Source: Candidatus Kapaibacterium sp. (GTDB lineage: Bacteria > Bacteroidota > Ignavibacteria > Kapaibacteriales > UBA4661). Taken from it: 36,062 nucleotides of DNA. The stretch lies in contig JANWZB010000016.1 of NCBI GenBank assembly GCA_025055035.1, forward strand, positions 1-36,062, read 5' to 3'. Shown here in pieces: positions 445 to 8,720 of this stretch. A program made the translations under genes and the position numbers. The notes below the pieces were generated by a model, which saw only the letters and a list, made by a program, of their open reading frames with translations, made no database searches and was not told the DNA's origin. Within the stretch, counting starts at the first letter, position 1; each line of letters begins with the position of its first letter.

Positions 445-1779
445 TTACCGCATAGCCTCAGCAGTATGTTTTTTCATCTGCTGAAGACTATGTGCTCCGG
501 TATAGAGCAGCAATGCTGACCCTAAGCACGCAATAGGACATATCAGCAGTCCATAGTGCATATTCCATGGATTTGTTGCTACACCCAGCATATCGTTGAT
601 TTGTCCAATAATCGGCGGACCTAGACCATATCCAATGATATTCACGACAAAAAAGTATACACCAACACCCAGGCCCCGCAACTGTGGTCCTACAATGTCA
701 TGTACATCGGCTGCTCCGGGACCGAGCCACACCAAGCCAAAGCCTGTGAGTACAACGTAGCATACAATCATCACCGTTAGATTTCCGGACAGCAAAAACA
801 CAAGCCATAGCGGGGCACACACTGTCGCTGATAACGCTGTAAAGAGCATGCGTCCACCATGCAAGCGCTTCTTGAACCAGTCGGCAATATATCCACCAAA
901 GGCTGTTCCGAGCCCTCCAGCCACAAGCATCGACATACCAGTCATTGTTCCAATAGCAACAAGCGACACTTCATGAGCGCGGTTCAACAGTGTTGGCACC
1001 CAGATGCTCAGGCTGTTGGTTGCTACAGCGAAGAGCGCATAGCCTGTGTGGTGCAGTACCAGTGCTCGATTCGATAGCAGCGCTAAGAAAGCAGACTTAC
1101 TCGAACGACTGCATCCTGCTGCATTTGCTGCATTGCTCGAGGTAGCGTTATCACCAATACCACGCGGTGGCTCATGAATGAAGAGTACAAATGCTGTCAG
1201 TATAAGCCCCGGAAAACCAAGGAGGTAAAATGCCCAGCGCCAGCTCAACACCTCGGCTAAAGCACCACCCAGAAAGAATGCAGCAGCAGCACCCAACGGA
1301 ATACCTGCCGAATAAATTGATTGCACTGTTGCCCGAAGGCGCTTAGGGAAAAAATCTGAGAGAAGCGACATTGCTGCCGGACCGAGTGTTGCCTCACCTA
1401 CCCCCACCATCACTCGACAACCAAAAATTGTCCAAAAGTCTGTTGCAAATCCTGTTAATCCCGAAAACAAGCTCCACACAGCTAGCCCAATAGCAATCAT
1501 GGTTTTACGCACAACTCTATCCGCCAAATGCCCAAACGGAATCCCTAGCGCTGTGTAGAATATCACGAACGATGTTGTACCAAGCAGCGCAAGCTGTAGA
1601 TCTGAAAGAACCATTTCTCTCTTAATCGGCGGGAACAGAATGTATATGAGTGTCCTATCCAGAAAGTTCATCAGGTAGACAAGACATAGTAGTGCCAAAA
1701 CATACCACGAGTACGGGGGTATTTTTTCCTGCACTTCTTCCTCTATGCCTTGCTCGTCGTTTAGGGAAAATGTAGCCAT
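445..1779 (-). CDS. MFS transporter (Spinster-like)
   Basis: A 444-residue major facilitator superfamily permease of the inner membrane with about twelve hydrophobic segments. The loop between segments 2 and 3 reads GIPFGHLADRVVRKTMIAIG, the MFS motif A. VGVGEATLGPAAMSLLSDFFP and the early NFLDRTLIYILFPPIKRE resemble Spinster-type organic-anion/lipid permeases; the substrate cannot be read. The frame stays open to a GTG at 1839, but the ATG at 1779 is preferred because it gives the usual short hydrophilic N-terminus (MATFSLNDEQGIEEEVQ) before the first helix at about residue 25. No clear Shine-Dalgarno is visible. It lies 98 bp downstream of the KAS III-like gene and may be read with the PHA locus; export of a hydroxy acid would be speculation. 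Confidence 0.85.
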   Translation of the reverse strand: MATFSLNDEQGIEEEVQEKIPPYSWYVLALLCLVYLMNFLDRTLIYILFPPIKREMVLSDLQLALLGTTSFVIFYTALGIPFGHLADRVVRKTMIAIGLAVWSLFSGLTGFATDFWTIFGCRVMVGVGEATLGPAAMSLLSDFFPKRLRATVQSIYSAGIPLGAAAAFFLGGALAEVLSWRWAFYLLGFPGLILTAFVLFIHEPPRGIGDNATSSNAANAAGCSRSSKSAFLALLSNRALVLHHTGYALFAVATNSLSIWVPTLLNRAHEVSLVAIGTMTGMSMLVAGGLGTAFGGYIADWFKKRLHGGRMLFTALSATVCAPLWLVFLLSGNLTVMIVCYVVLTGFGLVWLGPGAADVHDIVGPQLRGLGVGVYFFVVNIIGYGLGPPIIGQINDMLGVATNPWNMHYGLLICPIACLGSALLLYTGAHSLQQMKKHTAEAMR

Positions 1780-1877
1780 AGCAGCCCAAAAAGCATAAAT
1801 GAACACACAAATACGAAACACACAGCACACACCTACCACAGCGAGGTAATTGCGGCATTATTCAGCAGTCCAGACTA

Positions 1878-2885
1878 CTAGAATCGTAGCGCCAGGCTTG
1901 CAAATGCTAAGCCTCCACCTGAACCCATAAACATGAGTACATCGCCAGGCTTGATTTTTTCTTGCTGCATTGCCTCGTCGAGTGCCATGCCAATACACGC
2001 CGAGCCAGTATATCCAAATCTCTCCATAATGTTATGCGAGCGTTCTATAGGAACGTCGAGCCGCTGCATTGTTTCGCGAATGGAGTTGATGTTGATTTGT
2101 GTGAAAAAGTAGTGCTGTATGTTCTCCGGGGCAACACTAGCACGCTTGCTCACCGCTCGAATCATATCAACCCATGTGTTGGGGTTGAGCTCACGAGGAA
2201 ATTTCTTCACAAATCTGAGTAGATGGTCTTTGCGATCCAGAACGTCTTGTGTCATTGGATAGCGCGCTGCACCACCGTAAATACCCATCCAATCATAGTA
2301 TTGTCCCTGCGTGCGCAATTCACTTGCTAGGTATCCTCTCATACCTTCCGCTGACTCCTTGTTACTATACTCTGCACTGAGCACAGCAGCAGCAGCACCA
2401 TCAGCAAAGAGTGTTACTGTCTTTTTATCCGCTTTGTTGAGATACTTGCTCATCGCATATGCTCCAATCACGAGAACATGCTTGTAGTGGTCATCAGCAC
2501 GAATAAACTTTGCAGCAACATCGAGACCTGTAACAAAACCGGCACAAGCGGTGTTGATATCGAATGTTCCAGCATTTCTTGCCCCAATCCGATACTGTAC
2601 AACCGATGCTGTCGAGGGAGACACGAACTCAGGGGTATCGGTAGCAACAATCAGTAGGTCGAGGTCTTGAGCAGCAATACCAGCATTGCGGAGCGCCTCT
2701 CGTGCTGCGCATTCAGCAAGATCGGCAGTGGATTCGTTCTCATCGCACCAGCGCCTCTCTCGAATCGTCAAATTCTCTACAAGCCATGTACTCACGTCCT
2801 CACCTAGCATTGCATCAAAGTAGCTATTCGGAATAATGTTTGCGGGTACATACGACCCTGTCGCTCGAAGTATAGCGTTCCTCAT
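1878..2885 (-). CDS. KAS III (FabH)-like thiolase-fold protein with altered active site
   Basis: A 335-residue thiolase-superfamily protein that lines up along its length with FabH. The cysteine motif is intact (FDINTACAGF, Cys114), and the C-terminus IKPGDVLMFMGSGGGLAF matches the family. The ordinary FabH pair His/Asn is not present. The PHQAN site reads FTQIN (Thr262) and the GNTSA site reads GYTGSA (Tyr292). Acyl transfer to Cys114 remains possible, but classical decarboxylative condensation with malonyl-ACP is doubtful. The ATG at 2885 is chosen because AGAGGA lies just upstream; the frame is open to 2903. It follows the fabG/phaB gene by 63 bp and probably shares its transcript. No phaA thiolase is present in the window, so a role in supplying or diverting acyl-CoA for PHA is possible but unproven. 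Confidence 0.85.
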   Translation of the reverse strand: MRNAILRATGSYVPANIIPNSYFDAMLGEDVSTWLVENLTIRERRWCDENESTADLAECAAREALRNAGIAAQDLDLLIVATDTPEFVSPSTASVVQYRIGARNAGTFDINTACAGFVTGLDVAAKFIRADDHYKHVLVIGAYAMSKYLNKADKKTVTLFADGAAAAVLSAEYSNKESAEGMRGYLASELRTQGQYYDWMGIYGGAARYPMTQDVLDRKDHLLRFVKKFPRELNPNTWVDMIRAVSKRASVAPENIQHYFFTQININSIRETMQRLDVPIERSHNIMERFGYTGSACIGMALDEAMQQEKIKPGDVLMFMGSGGGLAFASLALRF

Positions 2886-2948
2886 TGTATCCTCTTTGTA
2901 CACACTACCACATGGCGCTCGATACTAGAAAGCCTTGTCGTTTTGGAT

Positions 2949-3692
2949 TTAGAGCGTTACCCCGCCGTCAACACTGAGGACTGCTCCTGTAATGAAACTT
3001 GCTTCATCAGATGCAAGGAACAAGTATGCATGTGCAACGTCTTCGGGTGTTCCTAAGCGCTGCAGAGGTGTTTTCTCACGCATAGTGTCCAGAACCTTTT
3101 CAGGAATGGTGGAAAGCATATCTGTTGCAATAAAGCCGGGTGCAATAGCGTTGACCGTTATCCCTTTACGACCAAGCTCTTTCGCCCAAACTTTCGTCAT
3201 GCCAATAACTCCCGCTTTTGCCGCAGCGTAGTTTGTTTGACCAAAATTTCCATATAAACCAACAACAGACGATGCATTGATAATACGACCGTATCGTTGC
3301 TCAACCATGTATGGAACAATAGCATGAGCGCAGTTAAAAACGCCTGTTAGATTCACATCAATTACTTGCTGCCACTGTGCTGATGTTATTTTTAGCAGTG
3401 TTGCATCTCGAGTAATGCCAGCGTTATTCACTAAAATATCTATACGACCATATGCTTGAACAACATCTCGTGCTGCTACATAAACTTCTTCTACATTGAC
3501 AACGTCGACAGACTTGAACACCACCTGCTCGCCACGTGCTTGACATTCTTCTACAATATGCCTCCCTTTTTCTACGTGAATATCCCAGAGCACAACAGTC
3601 GCTCCGTGCTGCGCAAACAGCTGAGCAGTTGCAAGACCTATACCCTGAACGCCACCAGTAATTACTGCAATTTTACTTTCTAAGCGTCTCAT
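2949..3692 (-). CDS. fabG: 3-oxoacyl-ACP / acetoacetyl-CoA reductase (FabG/PhaB type SDR)
   Basis: A 247-residue classical short-chain dehydrogenase. It has the nucleotide-binding TGGVQGIG near residue 13, NNAG at 89-92, Asn114, Ser142, Tyr155 and Lys159 (NYAAAK), and a C-terminus ASFITGAVLSVDGGVTL typical of FabG. The reaction is NADPH-dependent reduction of a 3-oxoacyl thioester to the (R)-3-hydroxyacyl thioester in the cytoplasm. Sequence alone cannot separate FabG (ACP substrate) from PhaB (CoA substrate). Position beside phaEC, and the same operator as phaE, favour a PhaB role supplying (R)-3-hydroxyacyl-CoA. A GTG at 3695 immediately precedes the chosen ATG. The gene has its own promoter region behind a terminator. 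Confidence 0.9.
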   Translation of the reverse strand: MRRLESKIAVITGGVQGIGLATAQLFAQHGATVVLWDIHVEKGRHIVEECQARGEQVVFKSVDVVNVEEVYVAARDVVQAYGRIDILVNNAGITRDATLLKITSAQWQQVIDVNLTGVFNCAHAIVPYMVEQRYGRIINASSVVGLYGNFGQTNYAAAKAGVIGMTKVWAKELGRKGITVNAIAPGFIATDMLSTIPEKVLDTMREKTPLQRLGTPEDVAHAYLFLASDEASFITGAVLSVDGGVTL

Positions 3693-3729
3693 CACTTCAA
3701 TCGTTTTATTTGTTTATACCTTTTAGTTC

Positions 3730-3747
3730 ATTTGAAATTTTTCAAAT
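3730..3747 (-). promoter_or_regulatory. Palindromic operator in front of fabG/phaB
   Basis: Read toward the gene the site is ATTTGAAAAATTTCAAAT: two perfect 7-bp inverted arms (ATTTGAA/TTCAAAT) around 4 bp. It directly adjoins TATT, forming TATTATTTG, and ends 37 bp before the start codon. The same element in the same orientation occurs before phaE (7435-7452, also 37 bp from its ATG) and before the lipase (7572-7589). Placement fits a repressor site. The binding protein is inferred to be the GbsR-type regulator at 3933-4652. Confidence 0.65.
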
Positions 3748-3760
3748 AATATCCCGCAAT

Positions 3761-3785
3761 AAAAAGCCGCTGTGGTACTACGGCT
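3761..3785 (-). terminator. Intrinsic terminator after the regulator gene
   Basis: On the minus strand AGCCG (3785-3781) pairs with CGGCT (3769-3765), with a possible further GT/AC pair inside the loop, and TTTTT follows at once. It lies 147 bp past the regulator stop and upstream of the fabG operator. It therefore separates the phaE-phaC-regulator unit from fabG. Confidence 0.6.
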
Positions 3786-3932
3786 CTCTAGTATCAGGGA
3801 ATCAAGTACAAACTACAGAACTTTTTGTTTACTGTTTTTCTCTACTGTGCGAAATTAACAGAGTTTTACGATTATGCAACAGGATTTTGGTCTATCATAA
3901 AAATTTTTTCTGTACTGCAAATAGTTATCTAA

Positions 3933-4652
3933 CTAACTATCAAACACATGACCATTCTCTCCAGCAGGGCGAGATATGCCGTGTTCCTGCACACTTGGTA
4001 CATTCGCCGTCTCGGAATACAGCGTTGGACGGATTGTTGCCCACTCCTCTAGAAACCGCGCAAAATGCTGTTCCATCAGTGTGTAGAATGTTTGCATTTC
4101 CTTGAGCCGTTTCAGCAGCAAGCTCTTATCCGGAATAGTATGCTCGGCAGCCTCACTGACCTTCGCACGCAAATCTCGCGCAATTTCTGTGTTGTGATGA
4201 ATAAGCTGAGCAAAGTTTCGGAATGCATTTGCGAATACCTCTGGCTGAATTTCATAGTAGTCTTTCCGACTACCCGGATTCCACACTTTACGAATGATAT
4301 TCCGTTCATTGAGCCGCCGCGTTACCTGACTGATAGGACCTTTACTCATACCGAGCTGCTCAGTGATATCATCAAGTGATAAAGGTTGTGGTGAGTACAA
4401 TAGGAGTGCTACAATGTGTCCCATCTGCTTACTTAAGCCGAACCCTCTATACGCCTCACCAAATGCTTGGAGCATCTGGCGCTTTGTTTCATCCATCTGA
4501 ATTCCTTCCGACAGCGATTCTTCAGCTGCTGCTCTAGCCGAAGCCTCGGGAGAAATTACTTCATCCTCAGAGGTAGCATTATGCCTGCGCCCATGTCCTA
4601 TCGTTTCTTTTTCCATGTATTCTAAACCTACATCTTCAGAAAGCATGTTCAT
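3933..4652 (-). CDS. GbsR/MarR-type winged-helix regulator in the PHA locus
   Basis: Up to 239 residues. The recognisable part, MDETKRQMLQAFGEAYRGFG onward, has the GbsR-family layout: a helix with GLSKQMGHIVALLLYSPQPL, the helix-turn-helix LSLDDITEQLGMSKGPISQV, the wing RKVWNPGSRKDYYEI, and a long C-terminal helical region for dimerisation. The start is uncertain. The ATG at 4496 has a good GAAGGA site and gives 187 residues, the family's usual length. The frame stays open through an acidic Ser/Glu-rich extension to ATGs at 4616, 4646 and 4652 and a TTG at 4670. The TATAAT at 4703-4708 favours the longer form, so that is given. It lies between phaC and fabG, making it the best candidate for binding the operators at 3730, 7435 and 7572; this is inference. 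Confidence 0.8.
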   Translation of the reverse strand: MNMLSEDVGLEYMEKETIGHGRRHNATSEDEVISPEASARAAAEESLSEGIQMDETKRQMLQAFGEAYRGFGLSKQMGHIVALLLYSPQPLSLDDITEQLGMSKGPISQVTRRLNERNIIRKVWNPGSRKDYYEIQPEVFANAFRNFAQLIHHNTEIARDLRAKVSEAAEHTIPDKSLLLKRLKEMQTFYTLMEQHFARFLEEWATIRPTLYSETANVPSVQEHGISRPAGENGHVFDS

Positions 4653-4702
4653 ACTGTATTGGTGGAGCAAACGTGCTAAGCAACTTATTGATTTATCTAC
4701 GC

Positions 4703-4708
4703 ATTATA
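4703..4708 (-). promoter_or_regulatory. Possible -10 element (TATAAT) for the regulator gene
   Basis: The minus strand reads TATAAT here, 50 bp before the ATG at 4652, in the gap behind phaC. No convincing -35 hexamer lies 17 bp upstream. About 15 bp downstream is ATAAATCAA, which matches the right half of the phaE operator. Autoregulation is therefore possible, but the match is only a half-site. Read-through from phaEC is also possible because no terminator is visible after phaC. Confidence 0.35.
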
Positions 4709-4739
4709 CAAACTTACACAAAAAATACCATTTCTGCTA

Positions 4740-5849
4740 CTACCTTCTTGTAGAACGACGTTTTTTCCGACGCGCTATACTTCTACTCTCCCCATCGCGA
4801 CAGCTTAGCCATTCTATAACCTTCGGAGCAAGCTGCTGCTGCGCCTTTGAACCGACAAATATTCCAATATGTCCACCTTGGATTTCATAGATTTCTTTAT
4901 CTTCTGTTCCAACGTACTTATTGAGTGCTCTACTGCTACGTGGCGGAACAATGTGATCTTCGGTTGCAATAACATTCAGCACTGGCATACTAATGTTCGC
5001 TAGACGAACTACCCTCCCACCTAACCGCAGCATACCGCGCACTAAGGAGTTCTGCTGATACAAGTCGCTAATAAACTGCCGATAGCATTCCCCGGGCTGC
5101 CCGGGGCTATCAAAAATCCATTGTTCCATTCGCAGAAAGTTCATACGTTTTTCTCTGTCATGCATAATACTTAGCGCACTCATGTACTTCTGCAAACGAG
5201 CAAAGGGTTTGAGCATAATGAATCCGGCATTTAAAACTTCCGCAGGTATAATGCCAAATGCATCAACCATTGCATGAACGTCTATTTCTTTTGCCCATTC
5301 AAAGAGTAAGCCTTCATGCACTGAGAAATCAATAGGAGTAGCAATAGTTACAAGGTTCTGAACCTTGTGAGGGAAGAGCGCCGCATATATCACTGAGAAT
5401 GTCCCACCTTGACACACTCCTACAAGATTCACTGTCGAAATATTCCTATGCTGGCGAATTACTTCGACGGCGTCATCAATAAACCCTGAAATATAGTCGT
5501 CCAGCGTCACATACCGATCAAACCGCGATGGATATCCCCAGTCTATCATATAGACATCAGCACCCAAGCGCAGCAACTGCTGAACTAAACTACGGTCAGG
5601 CTGCAAATCAAGCATGTAAGGACGATTCACGAGCGCATACACAAGAAGTATGGGAATACGAACACGTTGCTCTTGCTTCCCATGAGCCTTATGCCAAAAA
5701 CGATACAAGCGAACATGTCCGTCTTCCCACACACACTCTTTTTCTGACAACCCTACAGGAACATCATGCACTTCTTGTAAGGCATTCAAGCTCTGTACAA
5801 GTTGATGGTGCACTGTGATGATATGCTCTGGAATTGATACAGCCTGCAT
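4740..5849 (-). CDS. phaC: Class III polyhydroxyalkanoate synthase catalytic subunit
   Basis: A 369-residue alpha/beta hydrolase-fold enzyme that polymerises (R)-3-hydroxyacyl-CoA into PHA on granules. The lipase-like box is GVCQGG with nucleophile Cys146; the other triad members are Asp298 (VIATEDHIVPP) and His327 (QGGHIGIFVG). The early VNRPYMLDLQPDRSL and MIDWGYPSRFDRYVTLDDYI are typical of the family. Length near 370 residues and the adjacent phaE mark it as class III (PhaC-PhaE heteromer). The ATG at 5849 has a strong AGGAG six bases upstream and starts 18 bp after the phaE stop, so the two are co-transcribed. The C-terminus carries an arginine/lysine-rich tail (RRKKRRSTRR), perhaps helping granule or DNA contact. 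Confidence 0.95.
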   Translation of the reverse strand: MQAVSIPEHIITVHHQLVQSLNALQEVHDVPVGLSEKECVWEDGHVRLYRFWHKAHGKQEQRVRIPILLVYALVNRPYMLDLQPDRSLVQQLLRLGADVYMIDWGYPSRFDRYVTLDDYISGFIDDAVEVIRQHRNISTVNLVGVCQGGTFSVIYAALFPHKVQNLVTIATPIDFSVHEGLLFEWAKEIDVHAMVDAFGIIPAEVLNAGFIMLKPFARLQKYMSALSIMHDREKRMNFLRMEQWIFDSPGQPGECYRQFISDLYQQNSLVRGMLRLGGRVVRLANISMPVLNVIATEDHIVPPRSSRALNKYVGTEDKEIYEIQGGHIGIFVGSKAQQQLAPKVIEWLSCRDGESRSIARRKKRRSTRR

Positions 5850-5867
5850 TGTTGCTCCTACTATACA

Positions 5868-7397
5868 CTATCTCACACTACTTTTTCTTTTTGTTGGAGA
5901 ACTCTGCGCTGCACCTTTCTGCCCCTTTGGCTGCACGGTTGCTGCATCCTCAATTGTGGTCGCTTCAGCGTCTTTCTGCTTTTCCATTTGACGTACTTTG
6001 TGTTTCAATTCTGCAACAGTTTTTGCTAGTTCATCAATGTGTGAGCGCGTTACGATGGGAAAGTCTTTCAGGGCTATTTCGAAAAGGTGCTCAAAGTCTT
6101 TATAGAGCGATGCATGTATGTGTGCAAGCTTGCCCTGTACAGCAGCATAGTCCTTTGTTTTGAAGAGTTGATGGAAGACATGCTCATTCGTTTCTACCCA
6201 TATCTTAAATAGCTCATCGAAGCTCGAGAGCGCTTTCTTACTGCGCCCCACTGCAAACGCAGATTCTGTTATCTTCTCCAGAGCTTTTTGACCATTCGTG
6301 TACAGCATGTGCTGATATGTAGCTACAGTTTTTGCATATTCACTTAGGTGTTCCAGCAAATGTTGGACTGTATGGAGCATTTCGCTTTGGCGCTGCGTCA
6401 TAGGAAGAGCACTCATCGAGGAAATTGCTTGCTGATATGCCGACATAAGCGTTGTATACACGTTGAGTGCAGCTTCAGGATTATGCGCCATCATAGCAAA
6501 TATCATTCTAGCATTCTGCTCCATCTGCATCAGCAAAACACGCACAGCTTGATTGCCTGCTATATTAAGCGACTGAGCAAATGTCTGCAATTGCCTATAT
6601 AAAGCGTGCATCTGTTCGGGTATCATAAACTCAAACACTGTATCAATTACTGGCTTATACTTGCTCGGATGCAGAGCCTCATAAATCTGTTCCTGCGTTG
6701 GAGCTTTGCCTTGTTTCATTACTTCTATAAGTGGTGCCCATAGTTCAAGGAGTTTCACATACACTGTTGTGCTCGAAAGCATGTTGCGAAATGTATCGCG
6801 TGCTGCTCCTGCAGGCAGCGCCTCTGCCACTGAGCTATACATCTTTTGTACTGATGCACTCCACGAATGAGCAACATATTGCCATTGTTCATAGAGCTTT
6901 GCTAGTTGTACCAGCATAGACAGCGATGACGTTCCAGTTTCCATCATCTGTATCCAAGGCTCGAAGATACCTCGTTGAGCTTGTGGCAGGTTTTGGTTGA
7001 GGATTTGCAACCACGGCTGTGCCATTTGCATTATCGAACTCGACCATTGCTGCATCATGTGCAAAGGATTGACAGCTGTTTGCGGGCTAGTACTCGTAGA
7101 ATCCCCACTTCCATTCTCCATACTTATCCAAGGATTGTTGCTCATAGAGCCTATCGTATTTTTTGCAACGGCTTCAATTTGCTCTGTTGCCTGACGCGTA
7201 AGCGCACTGTGTTGCTCTGCAGCAGCACTATAGGCATCCATATATGCTCCTACTCCTATTTTCAAGGCTTTCTTTATGTCCCCCTCGGCAAAGGCATGTG
7301 CAGCTTGTTGCACTGATTCATTCCACGACGCTATTGCAGCGTTCTGACGCTGAAGCCACTCCGTATAGAAATTTAATGGTGATGTTTGCTGGCTCAT
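5868..7397 (-). CDS. phaE: Class III PHA synthase subunit PhaE
   Basis: A 509-residue, helix-rich protein without membrane segments. The C-terminal third carries the PhaE signature: a FDELFKIWVETNEHVFHQLF segment, then AAVQGKLAHIHASLYKDFEH, LKDFPIVTRSHIDELAKTV and a coiled coil ELKHKVRQMEKQ, ending in a basic tail. PhaE binds PhaC and is needed for full synthase activity. Known PhaE proteins are usually about 350 residues, so this one is long. The extra length lies in an N-terminal, methionine/glutamine-rich helical region (residues 1 to about 150) that may act as a phasin-like granule contact. The ATG at 7397 has AGGAGT seven bases upstream; the open frame runs to 7550 but crosses the promoter and operator. 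It is first in the phaE-phaC transcript. Confidence 0.88.
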   Translation of the reverse strand: MSQQTSPLNFYTEWLQRQNAAIASWNESVQQAAHAFAEGDIKKALKIGVGAYMDAYSAAAEQHSALTRQATEQIEAVAKNTIGSMSNNPWISMENGSGDSTSTSPQTAVNPLHMMQQWSSSIMQMAQPWLQILNQNLPQAQRGIFEPWIQMMETGTSSLSMLVQLAKLYEQWQYVAHSWSASVQKMYSSVAEALPAGAARDTFRNMLSSTTVYVKLLELWAPLIEVMKQGKAPTQEQIYEALHPSKYKPVIDTVFEFMIPEQMHALYRQLQTFAQSLNIAGNQAVRVLLMQMEQNARMIFAMMAHNPEAALNVYTTLMSAYQQAISSMSALPMTQRQSEMLHTVQHLLEHLSEYAKTVATYQHMLYTNGQKALEKITESAFAVGRSKKALSSFDELFKIWVETNEHVFHQLFKTKDYAAVQGKLAHIHASLYKDFEHLFEIALKDFPIVTRSHIDELAKTVAELKHKVRQMEKQKDAEATTIEDAATVQPKGQKGAAQSSPTKRKSSVR

Positions 7398-7434
7398 AAC
7401 TATACTCCTTTCATCACAAAATTTAATTTGAATA

Positions 7435-7452
7435 ATTTGATTTATTTCAAAT
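7435..7452 (-). promoter_or_regulatory. Palindromic operator overlapping the phaE -10 element
   Basis: Read toward phaE the site is ATTTGAAATAAATCAAAT, arms ATTTGA/TCAAAT perfect and seven-base arms with one mismatch. It overlaps the last six bases of the TATATTTG promoter element and ends 37 bp before the phaE ATG, the same spacing as at fabG. An additional half-site in the plus-strand orientation, ATTTGAA, lies at 7426-7432. Position over the -10 and transcription start is that of a repressor site. Confidence 0.65.
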
Positions 7453-7478
7453 ATAACAAAAATTTTAACCAAAGTCAA
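7448..7478 (-). promoter_or_regulatory. phaE promoter, Bacteroidota type
   Basis: The minus strand has TTG (part of TTGACT) at 7478-7476, 20 bp, then TATATTTG at 7455-7448, matching TTG-N20-TAnnTTTG. It also satisfies a sigma-70 reading (TTGACT, 17 bp, TATATT). The -10 end overlaps the operator. Confidence 0.65.
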
Positions 7479-7534
7479 GAAAATATCCCTTTTCATTGAC
7501 TTCCTACATACATTCTCACTATTTAAGATTACTC

Positions 7535-7564
7535 TTGACAATAGAAACAAAAATCGTATATTGT
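7535..7564 (+). promoter_or_regulatory. Promoter of the lipase gene
   Basis: TTGACA at 7535-7540, a 16-bp spacer and TATATT at 7557-7562 (TTG-N19-TATATTGT in the Bacteroidota convention). Transcription would start about 7570, immediately before or at the operator at 7572-7589. The phaE promoter is divergent from it. Confidence 0.55.
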
Positions 7565-7571
7565 ACTTATT

Positions 7572-7589
7572 ATTTGAAATACATCAAAC
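7572..7589 (+). promoter_or_regulatory. Operator-like palindrome in front of the lipase
   Basis: Reads ATTTGAAATACATCAAAC toward the lipase. Compared with the phaE site ATTTGAAATAAATCAAAT it differs at two of eighteen positions. It is preceded by TATT as at fabG (TATTATTTGAAA is identical in both). It lies at the predicted transcription start, 72 bp before the lipase ATG. Confidence 0.55.
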
Positions 7590-7661
7590 ATATCTAACGT
7601 TTAACTTCATACTGCTTATTCAGTTTCTATTTCCCAATCTTATCTTTAGGAGTGTGTAGTT

Positions 7662-8720
7662 ATGCGTCCGCTCGTTCACCACATTGCGCTTACTCTTGTT
7701 CTCATACTAGCCTACACAGCACTTTCCTGTAATATAGTACAAGAACCAGTTTGTATCCCCACTGCCCCAGAGAAGGAAGATCAATTACACACGCACACAG
7801 AGTCAAGTATATATAGCAACAAGGATGCATCAAGCATTCAGTCTGTCCCTTCGGGCTTTACTCCGCATTTTGCAGCATGGCTGCAAAACAACAGCTATGG
7901 TGGAGATAACTTCAGTGCTATTGCGTGTTATGGTGGAAGAACAAGCGCTTCTGATTCCCCAAGTAACGAACCTGTCATATTCATTCATGGAAACTCCGAC
8001 CGTGCTCTAGGAACAACTCCTGGGCAAACAGGTTGGTCGAATTCGATTTCTTATTTTCTTTCACAAGGGTATAAGTCTTCTGAGCTCTACGCTATTACAT
8101 GGGGACCATCAAATCAAGCTCTTGCGTCGGAGCAATATCATTCTCGTTCCTACCTTACCGCATACGGCGGTTTATTGAAGCTGTTCTTGCTTATACAGGC
8201 GCACAAAAAGTTGATATTATTGCTCACTCTATGGGAGTAACTCTTGCTCGCAAGGTAATTAAAGGTGGTTTAGCAAGCGACTTAGCTCATGGTGGTTCGT
8301 ATACTCTTGGAAATTCCCTCACATCACGCATTGATGCATTTGTCGGTATTGCGGGGGCAAATTGGGGTCTTGTATCTTGCTATCAAACAGGCGGCTCAAC
8401 ACCAACCTGCGCAGCAACGAATGGCTTATATCCCGGATACGCTGCCGGACGGACCACTTGGACTTTCAGCGATTCTTCAGGACCTCAACTCCACATCAGG
8501 CTACGAAGGGAGCTATCGCTATTCTATTTGGTCTACAGTCGATCAAGTTATCGGCTATGCAAATCTCGTGTATGGACGATACACCTCGCGCATTCCCGGG
8601 CAAACGGGCGAGCGCGTTTATACAACAGCACCCTACGGACATTTTGGCTGCAAAGATTTAACAGCAGCTGTTCAGCTCAATATGGTGAAATTCCATACCA
8701 CGAATGAACAAGTACCGTAA
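7662..8720 (+). pseudogene. Exported class 2 lipase, interrupted by two compensating frameshifts
   Basis: A secreted alpha/beta-hydrolase of the class 2 lipase (Lipase_2, nematode/EstA-like) kind, about 352 residues once repaired. A Shine-Dalgarno AGGAG precedes the ATG; the N-terminus is a signal peptide with a possible lipobox (TALSC). Frame 0 carries the oxyanion region VIFIHGNSD up to YHSRSYLT. A one-base loss at the CC of 8158-8159 moves the sequence to another frame carrying RIRRFIEAVLAYTG and the nucleophile motif DIIAHSMGVT. An extra C in 8432-8434 restores frame 0, which carries PLGLSAILQDLN, VYGRYTSRIPGQTGE and the conserved ending YGHFGCKDLTAAVQLNMV. All three segments are conserved, so damage is recent or the two indels are sequencing errors. 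Promoter and operator are intact. Confidence 0.75.

What the first reader, a model, noticed from the sequence alone, without database searches (positions are those of the whole stretch)
3730..7589. One 18-bp palindrome controls three promoters: phaE, fabG/phaB and a lipase
Read toward each gene the sites are ATTTGAAAAATTTCAAAT (fabG), ATTTGAAATAAATCAAAT (phaE) and ATTTGAAATACATCAAAC (lipase). All have the same orientation and follow a TAT(T) element, overlapping or abutting the -10/start region. The sites at fabG and phaE each end exactly 37 bp before the ATG. This is a strong sign of a shared repressor site and a small PHA regulon not known to me in this phylum.
Basis: seen in the sequence. 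Interest (0 to 1): 0.8.

Follow-up and report, generated by a model that had tools for sequence, protein, structure and literature searches.

The report
GbsR-type operator controlling PHA/ester regulon
A rare 18-bp DNA palindrome found at only three places in this bacterium's genome sits at the promoters of genes that make bioplastic granules, break down polyester outside the cell and process fatty-acid-like compounds; it is almost certainly the docking site of the regulator encoded among those genes, and the same site-regulator pair recurs across related groups that do not make bioplastic at all.

Summary
Confirmed and extended. RTTTGA-N6-TCAAAY occurs three times in the 3.16-Mb genome, exactly at the three reported places. 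In its family, the stricter RTTTGA-W6-TCAAAY gives 17 sites in all 7 genomes that carry the GbsR/MarR-like gene at 3933-4616(-), and 0 in the 3 congeners without it; the reversed-pattern control is 0. All 17 lie before the same gene set: depolymerase, phaE, fabG, relocated fabH (two sites each in two genomes), or a chemoreceptor-acyl-CoA-ligase unit. Across the phylum, regulator loci carry the palindrome before the regulator itself (15/28) and before the next gene, usually fabG (20/28); shuffles give 0.3 and 0.1. The operator overlaps the -10 element or start region. Best reading: it is the operator of this Mj223/GbsR-type regulator, probably a repressor. The "PHA regulon" label is right here but too narrow: Ignavibacteria with the regulator and its sites have no PHA synthase. 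PHA synthase was probably added to an older ester/acid-scavenging regulon. The "lipase" is a PhaZ7-like lipoprotein, frameshifted in this assembly. Effector unknown; no binding data.

The parts
3730..3747 (-). Operator before fabG: ATTTGAAAAATTTCAAAT, 37 bp before ATG 3692; controls fabG-fabH-like-MFS-chemoreceptor
   Evidence: conserved before fabG in L016, L017, G008, L021-L023, L025-L027
7435..7452 (-). Operator before phaE: ATTTGAAATAAATCAAAT, overlapping the -10 element; controls phaE-phaC(-regulator)
   Evidence: conserved in L016-L019 with TTGAC exactly 26 bp upstream of the site in all five genomes
7572..7589 (+). Operator before the depolymerase/lipase: ATTTGAAATACATCAAAC, just downstream of the -10 element, over the predicted start region
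   Evidence: conserved in L016-L019
7450..7478 (-). phaE promoter TTGACT-17-TATATT (10 of 12); the -10 also reads TATATTTG and runs into the operator
7535..7562 (+). Depolymerase promoter TTGACA-16-TATATT (11 of 12, the best promoter-like match in 3600-7700)
3933..4616 (-). GbsR/Mj223-type MarR-fold regulator, the proposed binder; ATG at 4616, TTG at 4670 possible; follows phaC
   Evidence: PF01047 E=1.5e-4, CudC model E=8.6e-18 but below its cut-off; PDB 1ku9 E=1.5e-17; model and fold search; co-occurrence with sites
5868..7397 (-). phaE, class III PHA synthase subunit
   Evidence: PF09712 E=1e-24
4740..5849 (-). phaC, class III PHA synthase
   Evidence: TIGR01836 447.8 bits, above cut-off 365.3
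2949..3695 (-). fabG/phaB-like reductase (GTG 3695 or ATG 3692)
   Evidence: FabG model NF004198 above cut-off; acetoacetyl-CoA reductase TIGR01829 267.5 bits, below its cut-off 302.1
1878..2888 (-). FabH-like (KAS III fold) protein; active-site Cys kept, His and Asn replaced
445..1839 (-). MFS transporter of the organic-anion type, in the fabG operon
   Evidence: same order in L017
2..355 (-). 5' part of a Cache-domain chemoreceptor gene, cut by the contig end
   Evidence: full-length homologue L017:9786-11822 with MCPsignal domain
7662..8720 (+). PhaZ7-like (Lipase_2) lipoprotein depolymerase; reading frame broken in two places in this assembly

Best explanation
The palindrome RTTTGA-W6-TCAAAY is the operator of the GbsR/Mj223-type regulator encoded at 3933-4616(-). 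A dimer of this winged-helix protein, inferred from the family, binds the two half-sites. At phaE the operator overlaps the -10 element. At the depolymerase, and at the regulator gene itself in relatives, it lies at or just after the transcription start, so the bound protein most simply blocks RNA polymerase: repression, relieved when a pathway-derived acid or acyl(-CoA) ligand binds. In this genome the regulator follows phaC, so it is probably also controlled through the phaE site. The regulon jointly controls an extracellular PhaZ7-like depolymerase, a chemoreceptor, an organic-acid-type transporter, FabG/FabH-like acyl-CoA enzymes and PHA synthase PhaEC. It would couple detection, hydrolysis and uptake of an external polyester or ester with its activation and storage as PHA. 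Shown here: sites, conservation, co-occurrence with the regulator, promoter overlap by consensus. Inferred: physical binding, direction of control, ligand, physiological role.
For: Only three genome-wide matches, all at these promoters. Regulator present in G000, G001, G003, G006, G007, G008, G009 and absent from congeners G002, G004, G005: W6-core sites 17 against 0, reversed control 0 in all ten; the FabH-like orthologue has the same distribution. When fabH moved to another locus (G006:C8, G001:C52) two operators lie before it; one in G009. The palindromes are among the most conserved blocks in the intergenic alignments. In distant Ignavibacteria the sites precede the regulator itself, an autoregulation signature, and fabG: 10 of 12 genome-wide sites in 7 such genomes are at these two positions (positions matched to L021-L023 and L025-L027); phylum-wide 15/28 and 20/28 loci against 0.29 and 0.14 expected. 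The recognition-helix segment SKGPxSQ is invariant in this clade, while distant homologues L035, L037 and L038 have another one and no site within two mismatches. Second phaC paralogues and the phaC of regulator-less congeners have no site. -35/operator spacing is fixed at phaE in five genomes. Fold: Mj223 1ku9.
Against: No binding or expression data. The left half-site TTTG can double as part of a promoter -7/-10 element, which may account for some of its conservation. Another regulator of the same spacing (CRP/FNR type, TTGA-N6-TCAA) was not excluded by surveying such proteins. In G009 the phaC locus lacks the site although the regulator is present. Eight of 28 phylum loci lack a good site downstream and 13 of 28 lack one upstream.
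Confidence: 0.82

Rival explanations
1. The palindrome is bound by a CRP/FNR-family regulator (FNR-like core TTGA-N6-TCAA, my own knowledge) encoded elsewhere, and the GbsR-like gene is a bystander.
For: The core has the half-site spacing of FNR boxes; the sites overlap promoters.
Against: Exact co-occurrence with the GbsR-like gene within one genus, including loss of all W6 sites where that gene is absent; sites directly before the regulator gene itself in distant lineages; the outer G/A..C/T and AAA/TTT positions are nearly as invariant as the core.
Confidence: 0.08
2. The element is a promoter motif (Bacteroidota-type -7 box TAnnTTTG or an extended -10) that happens to look palindromic, not a regulator site.
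For: TAnnTTTG or TAnnnTTTG runs into the left half-site in most of the family's sites.
Against: The right half TCAAAY is equally conserved and not needed by any promoter element; at the depolymerase the -10 element lies upstream of the site; a promoter element would occur hundreds of times, but this occurs 3 times in this genome.
Confidence: 0.05
3. The GbsR-like protein binds these sites as an activator, or as a dual regulator, rather than a simple repressor.
For: Not excluded by sequence; two tandem operators precede relocated fabH.
Against: Sites lie over the -10 element or downstream of the predicted start, a position typical of repression; B. subtilis GbsR represses from an operator downstream of the start site (PMC7396694).
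Confidence: 0.12
4. Conservation reflects only recent shared ancestry of a mobile PHA cassette, with the sites carried along neutrally.
For: The cluster is patchy within the genus.
Against: The surrounding intergenic DNA is poorly conserved while the palindrome is conserved; sites reappear at relocated fabH and in lineages with a different operon order.
Confidence: 0.02

Closest known systems
GbsR family of MarR-type regulators (B. subtilis GbsR, OpuAR, CudC, CydE; structure Mj223, PDB 1ku9)
   Same: Same fold by sequence and model; B. subtilis GbsR likewise uses an A/T-rich inverted repeat near the start site (PMC7396694).
   Different: Known members control osmoprotectant uptake/synthesis or cydAB oxidase genes; for the Bacteroidetes subgroup no consistent gene context had been seen (PMC6207618). 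Here the targets are acyl-CoA/PHA/esterase genes, with an operator sequence specific to this clade.
PhaR/AniA, PHB-binding regulator of phasin and depolymerase genes (Cupriavidus, Sinorhizobium)
   Same: Also a repressor-type control of PHA genes through palindromes at promoters, including PHB depolymerase genes.
   Different: Unrelated protein of no well-characterised factor family; operator is TGC-rich (YTKNTGCRNYGCANMAR, PMC12849132; WNWD2NYGCRNYGCRNH2WNW, PMC12542648), not GTTTGA-N6-TCAAAC.
PHB depolymerase PhaZ7 (Paucimonas lemoignei, PDB 4bvl/2vtv)
   Same: Closest solved relative of the co-regulated 'lipase'; NCBIfam PhaZ7 model hits it.
   Different: Score far below the PhaZ7 cut-off (90 bits or less against 450); the N-terminus looks like a lipoprotein signal (by eye); substrate untested.

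Membership tests
GbsR/Mj223 family (MarR superfamily) | Winged-helix DNA-binding domain with C-terminal helical dimerisation region like Mj223 | tested here: met
   PDB 1ku9 is best by sequence (E=1.5e-17) and by fold (E=4.2e-9); predicted wHTH plus two long C-terminal helices, core pLDDT about 90
GbsR/Mj223 family (MarR superfamily) | Operator is an A/T-rich inverted repeat at or after the transcription start | tested here: inconclusive
   An A/T-rich inverted repeat lies over or just after the predicted -10 in several genomes, but transcript starts are not mapped and binding is not shown
Choline-sensing GbsR/CudC/OpuAR subgroup | Choline regulator CudC model above its curated score | tested here: not met
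   NF047500 64.7 bits against cut-off 218
Choline-sensing GbsR/CudC/OpuAR subgroup | Gene next to osmoprotectant transporter or glycine-betaine synthesis genes | tested here: not met
   Neighbours are fabG, fabH-like, transporter, acyl-CoA ligase, PHA synthase
Choline-sensing GbsR/CudC/OpuAR subgroup | Aromatic cage of the effector site | not tested
   No alignment to B. subtilis GbsR residues was made
PhaR/AniA | TGC-rich palindromic operator | tested here: not met
   Sites are RTTTGA-W6-TCAAAY; PhaR motifs from PMC12849132 and PMC12542648
PhaR/AniA | PhaR-type DNA-binding protein encoded with the pha genes | tested here: not met
   The regulator encoded beside phaEC matches MarR/GbsR-type models only
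Class III PHA synthase | PhaC and PhaE subunits | tested here: met
   TIGR01836 above cut-off; PF09712 above cut-off, TIGR01834 below its cut-off
PhaZ7 depolymerase | NCBIfam PhaZ7 equivalog score | tested here: not met
   34.6, 52.9 and 90.2 bits against 450; homologous but not an assigned member

The most novel reading that the evidence does not exclude
A regulon, widespread in this phylum, of a previously unassigned GbsR subgroup whose repressor senses a hydroxyacid or acyl-CoA and controls scavenging of external esters/polyesters (chemoreceptor, depolymerase, porin-like protein, symporter, acyl-CoA ligase, a non-canonical FabH-like enzyme), and to which intracellular PHA synthesis was secondarily wired in the Kapabacteria, linking eating polyester to storing it.
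Probability: 0.4. Interest if true: 0.68.

Novelty: new member of a known kind. Interest (0 to 1): 0.58.

Why it matters
It gives a GbsR-type clade, whose role in the Bacteroidetes was described as having no consistent gene context (PMC6207618), a concrete operator, an autoregulatory circuit and a conserved target set that can be tested at the bench. It also shows how polymer storage can be attached to an older scavenging regulon: the regulator and operator appear to have come first, and PHA synthase promoters carry the operator in one family. The operator is so rare (0 to 5 W6-core sites per genome) that it can be used as a marker to find regulon members, including the substrate-specific genes that would reveal the natural ligand.

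Tried and rejected
A loose two-mismatch search of the genome gave 130 matches against 76 in the control and is too permissive to use. N6-core searches in AT-rich relatives give many unrelated hits with mixed cores; only W6 cores discriminate. The equal 37-bp spacing at fabG and phaE was considered as a functional constraint and rejected, because it is not kept in relatives. Two extra sites in Ignavibacteria (G067:C5, G068:C27) lie near unrelated genes and were not pursued. Literature searches found no paper linking GbsR to PHA regulation and none on PHA regulation in this group; the library is open-access only.
Full report
OBSERVATION. The three palindromes are in the sequence exactly as described. 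Within the window the statistical support is modest. In the whole 3.16-Mb genome the pattern RTTTGA-N6-TCAAAY occurs three times, and all three are these sites; the backwards control occurs zero times. Expected number by base composition is about 1.2 for the N6 form and 0.03 for the W6 form.

SURROUNDINGS. On the minus strand the order is phaE (5868-7397), phaC (4740-5849), a GbsR/MarR-type regulator (3933-4616), [operator], fabG (2949-3695), a FabH-like gene (1878-2888), an MFS transporter (445-1839) and the start of a Cache-domain chemoreceptor (2-355). The divergent gene at 7662 is a Lipase_2 protein whose closest solved relative is the extracellular PHB depolymerase PhaZ7 (run on the intact L017 homologue; model hits).

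CONSERVATION IN THE FAMILY. Named relatives are MAGs called Candidatus Kapaibacterium or Ignavibacteria. In L016-L019 the same sites occur before the depolymerase and phaE, and before fabG (L016 with one mismatch, L017) or before the chemoreceptor/acyl-CoA-ligase unit that follows the regulator (L018, L019), mostly as GTTTGA-N6-TCAAAC. In the intergenic alignments the palindromes stand out as conserved blocks, with TTGAC elements as the main other ones. In G006 and G001, fabH and MFS have moved elsewhere and carry two operators each; in G009 fabH has one.

CO-OCCURRENCE. Of ten genomes of the family, seven have the regulator. The strict pattern RTTTGA-W6-TCAAAY has 17 sites in those seven and none in the three congeners lacking it; the reversed control is zero in all ten. 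The FabH-like orthologue is in exactly the same seven. A second phaC paralogue, present in all eight members of the genus, and the only phaC of the regulator-less genomes, carry no site.

WIDER DISTRIBUTION. Regulator homologues (E<=1e-30) occur in 56 of 395 sampled genomes of the phylum. In the best 28 loci apart from the family's own, a site with at most one mismatch lies within 150 bp upstream of the regulator in 15 and within 150 bp downstream of it, normally before fabG, in 20; dinucleotide shuffles give 0.29 and 0.14. In seven genomes behind loci L021-L027, 10 of 12 genome-wide sites fall at the regulator or fabG (positions compared). Six of these genomes (L022-L027) have no PHA synthase match even at E<=1e-20, a level at which Caulobacter rings in the control set. 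Their operon reads regulator, fabG, fabH-like, sodium:solute symporter, AMP-forming acyl-CoA ligase, lipoprotein, outer-membrane protein, alpha/beta hydrolase, with variations. L021 joins both versions: phaE-phaC-regulator-[operator]-fabG-symporter-ligase-lipoprotein-OMP-PhaZ7-like lipase-hydrolase. So the ancestral regulon is probably an acyl/ester module, and PHA synthesis a later or lineage-specific addition. That order of events is inference from distribution; no tree was built.

MECHANISM. The two best promoter-like matches of 3600-7700 are at the divergent phaE/depolymerase region. At phaE, TTGAC lies exactly 26 bp before the operator in five genomes, which places the -10 across the operator's left edge; at the depolymerase TTGAC is 37-43 bp before it, and at the regulator gene 35 bp in the two genomes checked. 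The operator therefore covers the -10 or start region, the usual place for a repressor. The protein is of the Mj223/GbsR fold, and the recognition-helix segment SKGPxSQ is invariant in the clade but different in distant homologues that lack the site. Binding, repression and the ligand are inferred. A hydroxyacid or acyl-CoA ligand is the natural guess from the targets.

KNOWN RELATIVES. GbsR-type repressors are known for choline/glycine betaine and cydAB control; the review of the family found no consistent gene context for the Bacteroidetes subgroup (PMC6207618). B. subtilis GbsR also uses an A/T-rich inverted repeat downstream of the start site (PMC7396694). The known PHB regulator PhaR has a different protein type and a TGC-rich operator (PMC12849132, PMC12542648). 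The present case is thus a new regulon of a known regulator family.

LIMITS. All evidence is comparative. Relatives are mostly metagenome assemblies. CRP/FNR proteins were not surveyed. The literature library holds open-access papers only.

Noticed in passing
window 8159 and 8446 (depolymerase 7662-8720, +): Relative to the intact homologue in L018 the depolymerase gene carries two small length differences, near 8159 and near 8446, that each shift the frame; sequencing error or real pseudogene cannot be told. Homologues in L016-L019 and L021 are intact.
   Followed up: partly
window 1878-2888 (-), and L017, L022, L023, L025-L027, L078: The FabH-like enzyme keeps the catalytic Cys (ACAGF) but replaces the His of the HQAN motif by Thr (TQIN) and the Asn of GNTSAA by Tyr (YTGSA) in all eight orthologues aligned; probably not an ordinary decarboxylating ketosynthase.
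   Followed up: partly
G000:C228:7601-8638 (L100): A second class III phaC paralogue exists in this genome and in all sampled members of the genus, without the operator; its regulation must differ.
   Followed up: partly
L025:13373-14392: One Ignavibacteria operon carries a second KAS III-like gene after the acyl-CoA ligase.
   Followed up: no
L016, L018 and L019 intergenic phaE/depolymerase; window 7435-7589: The two divergent operators are 135 bp apart start-to-start in three relatives (137 in the window), but 185 in L017; possible looping was not tested.
   Followed up: no
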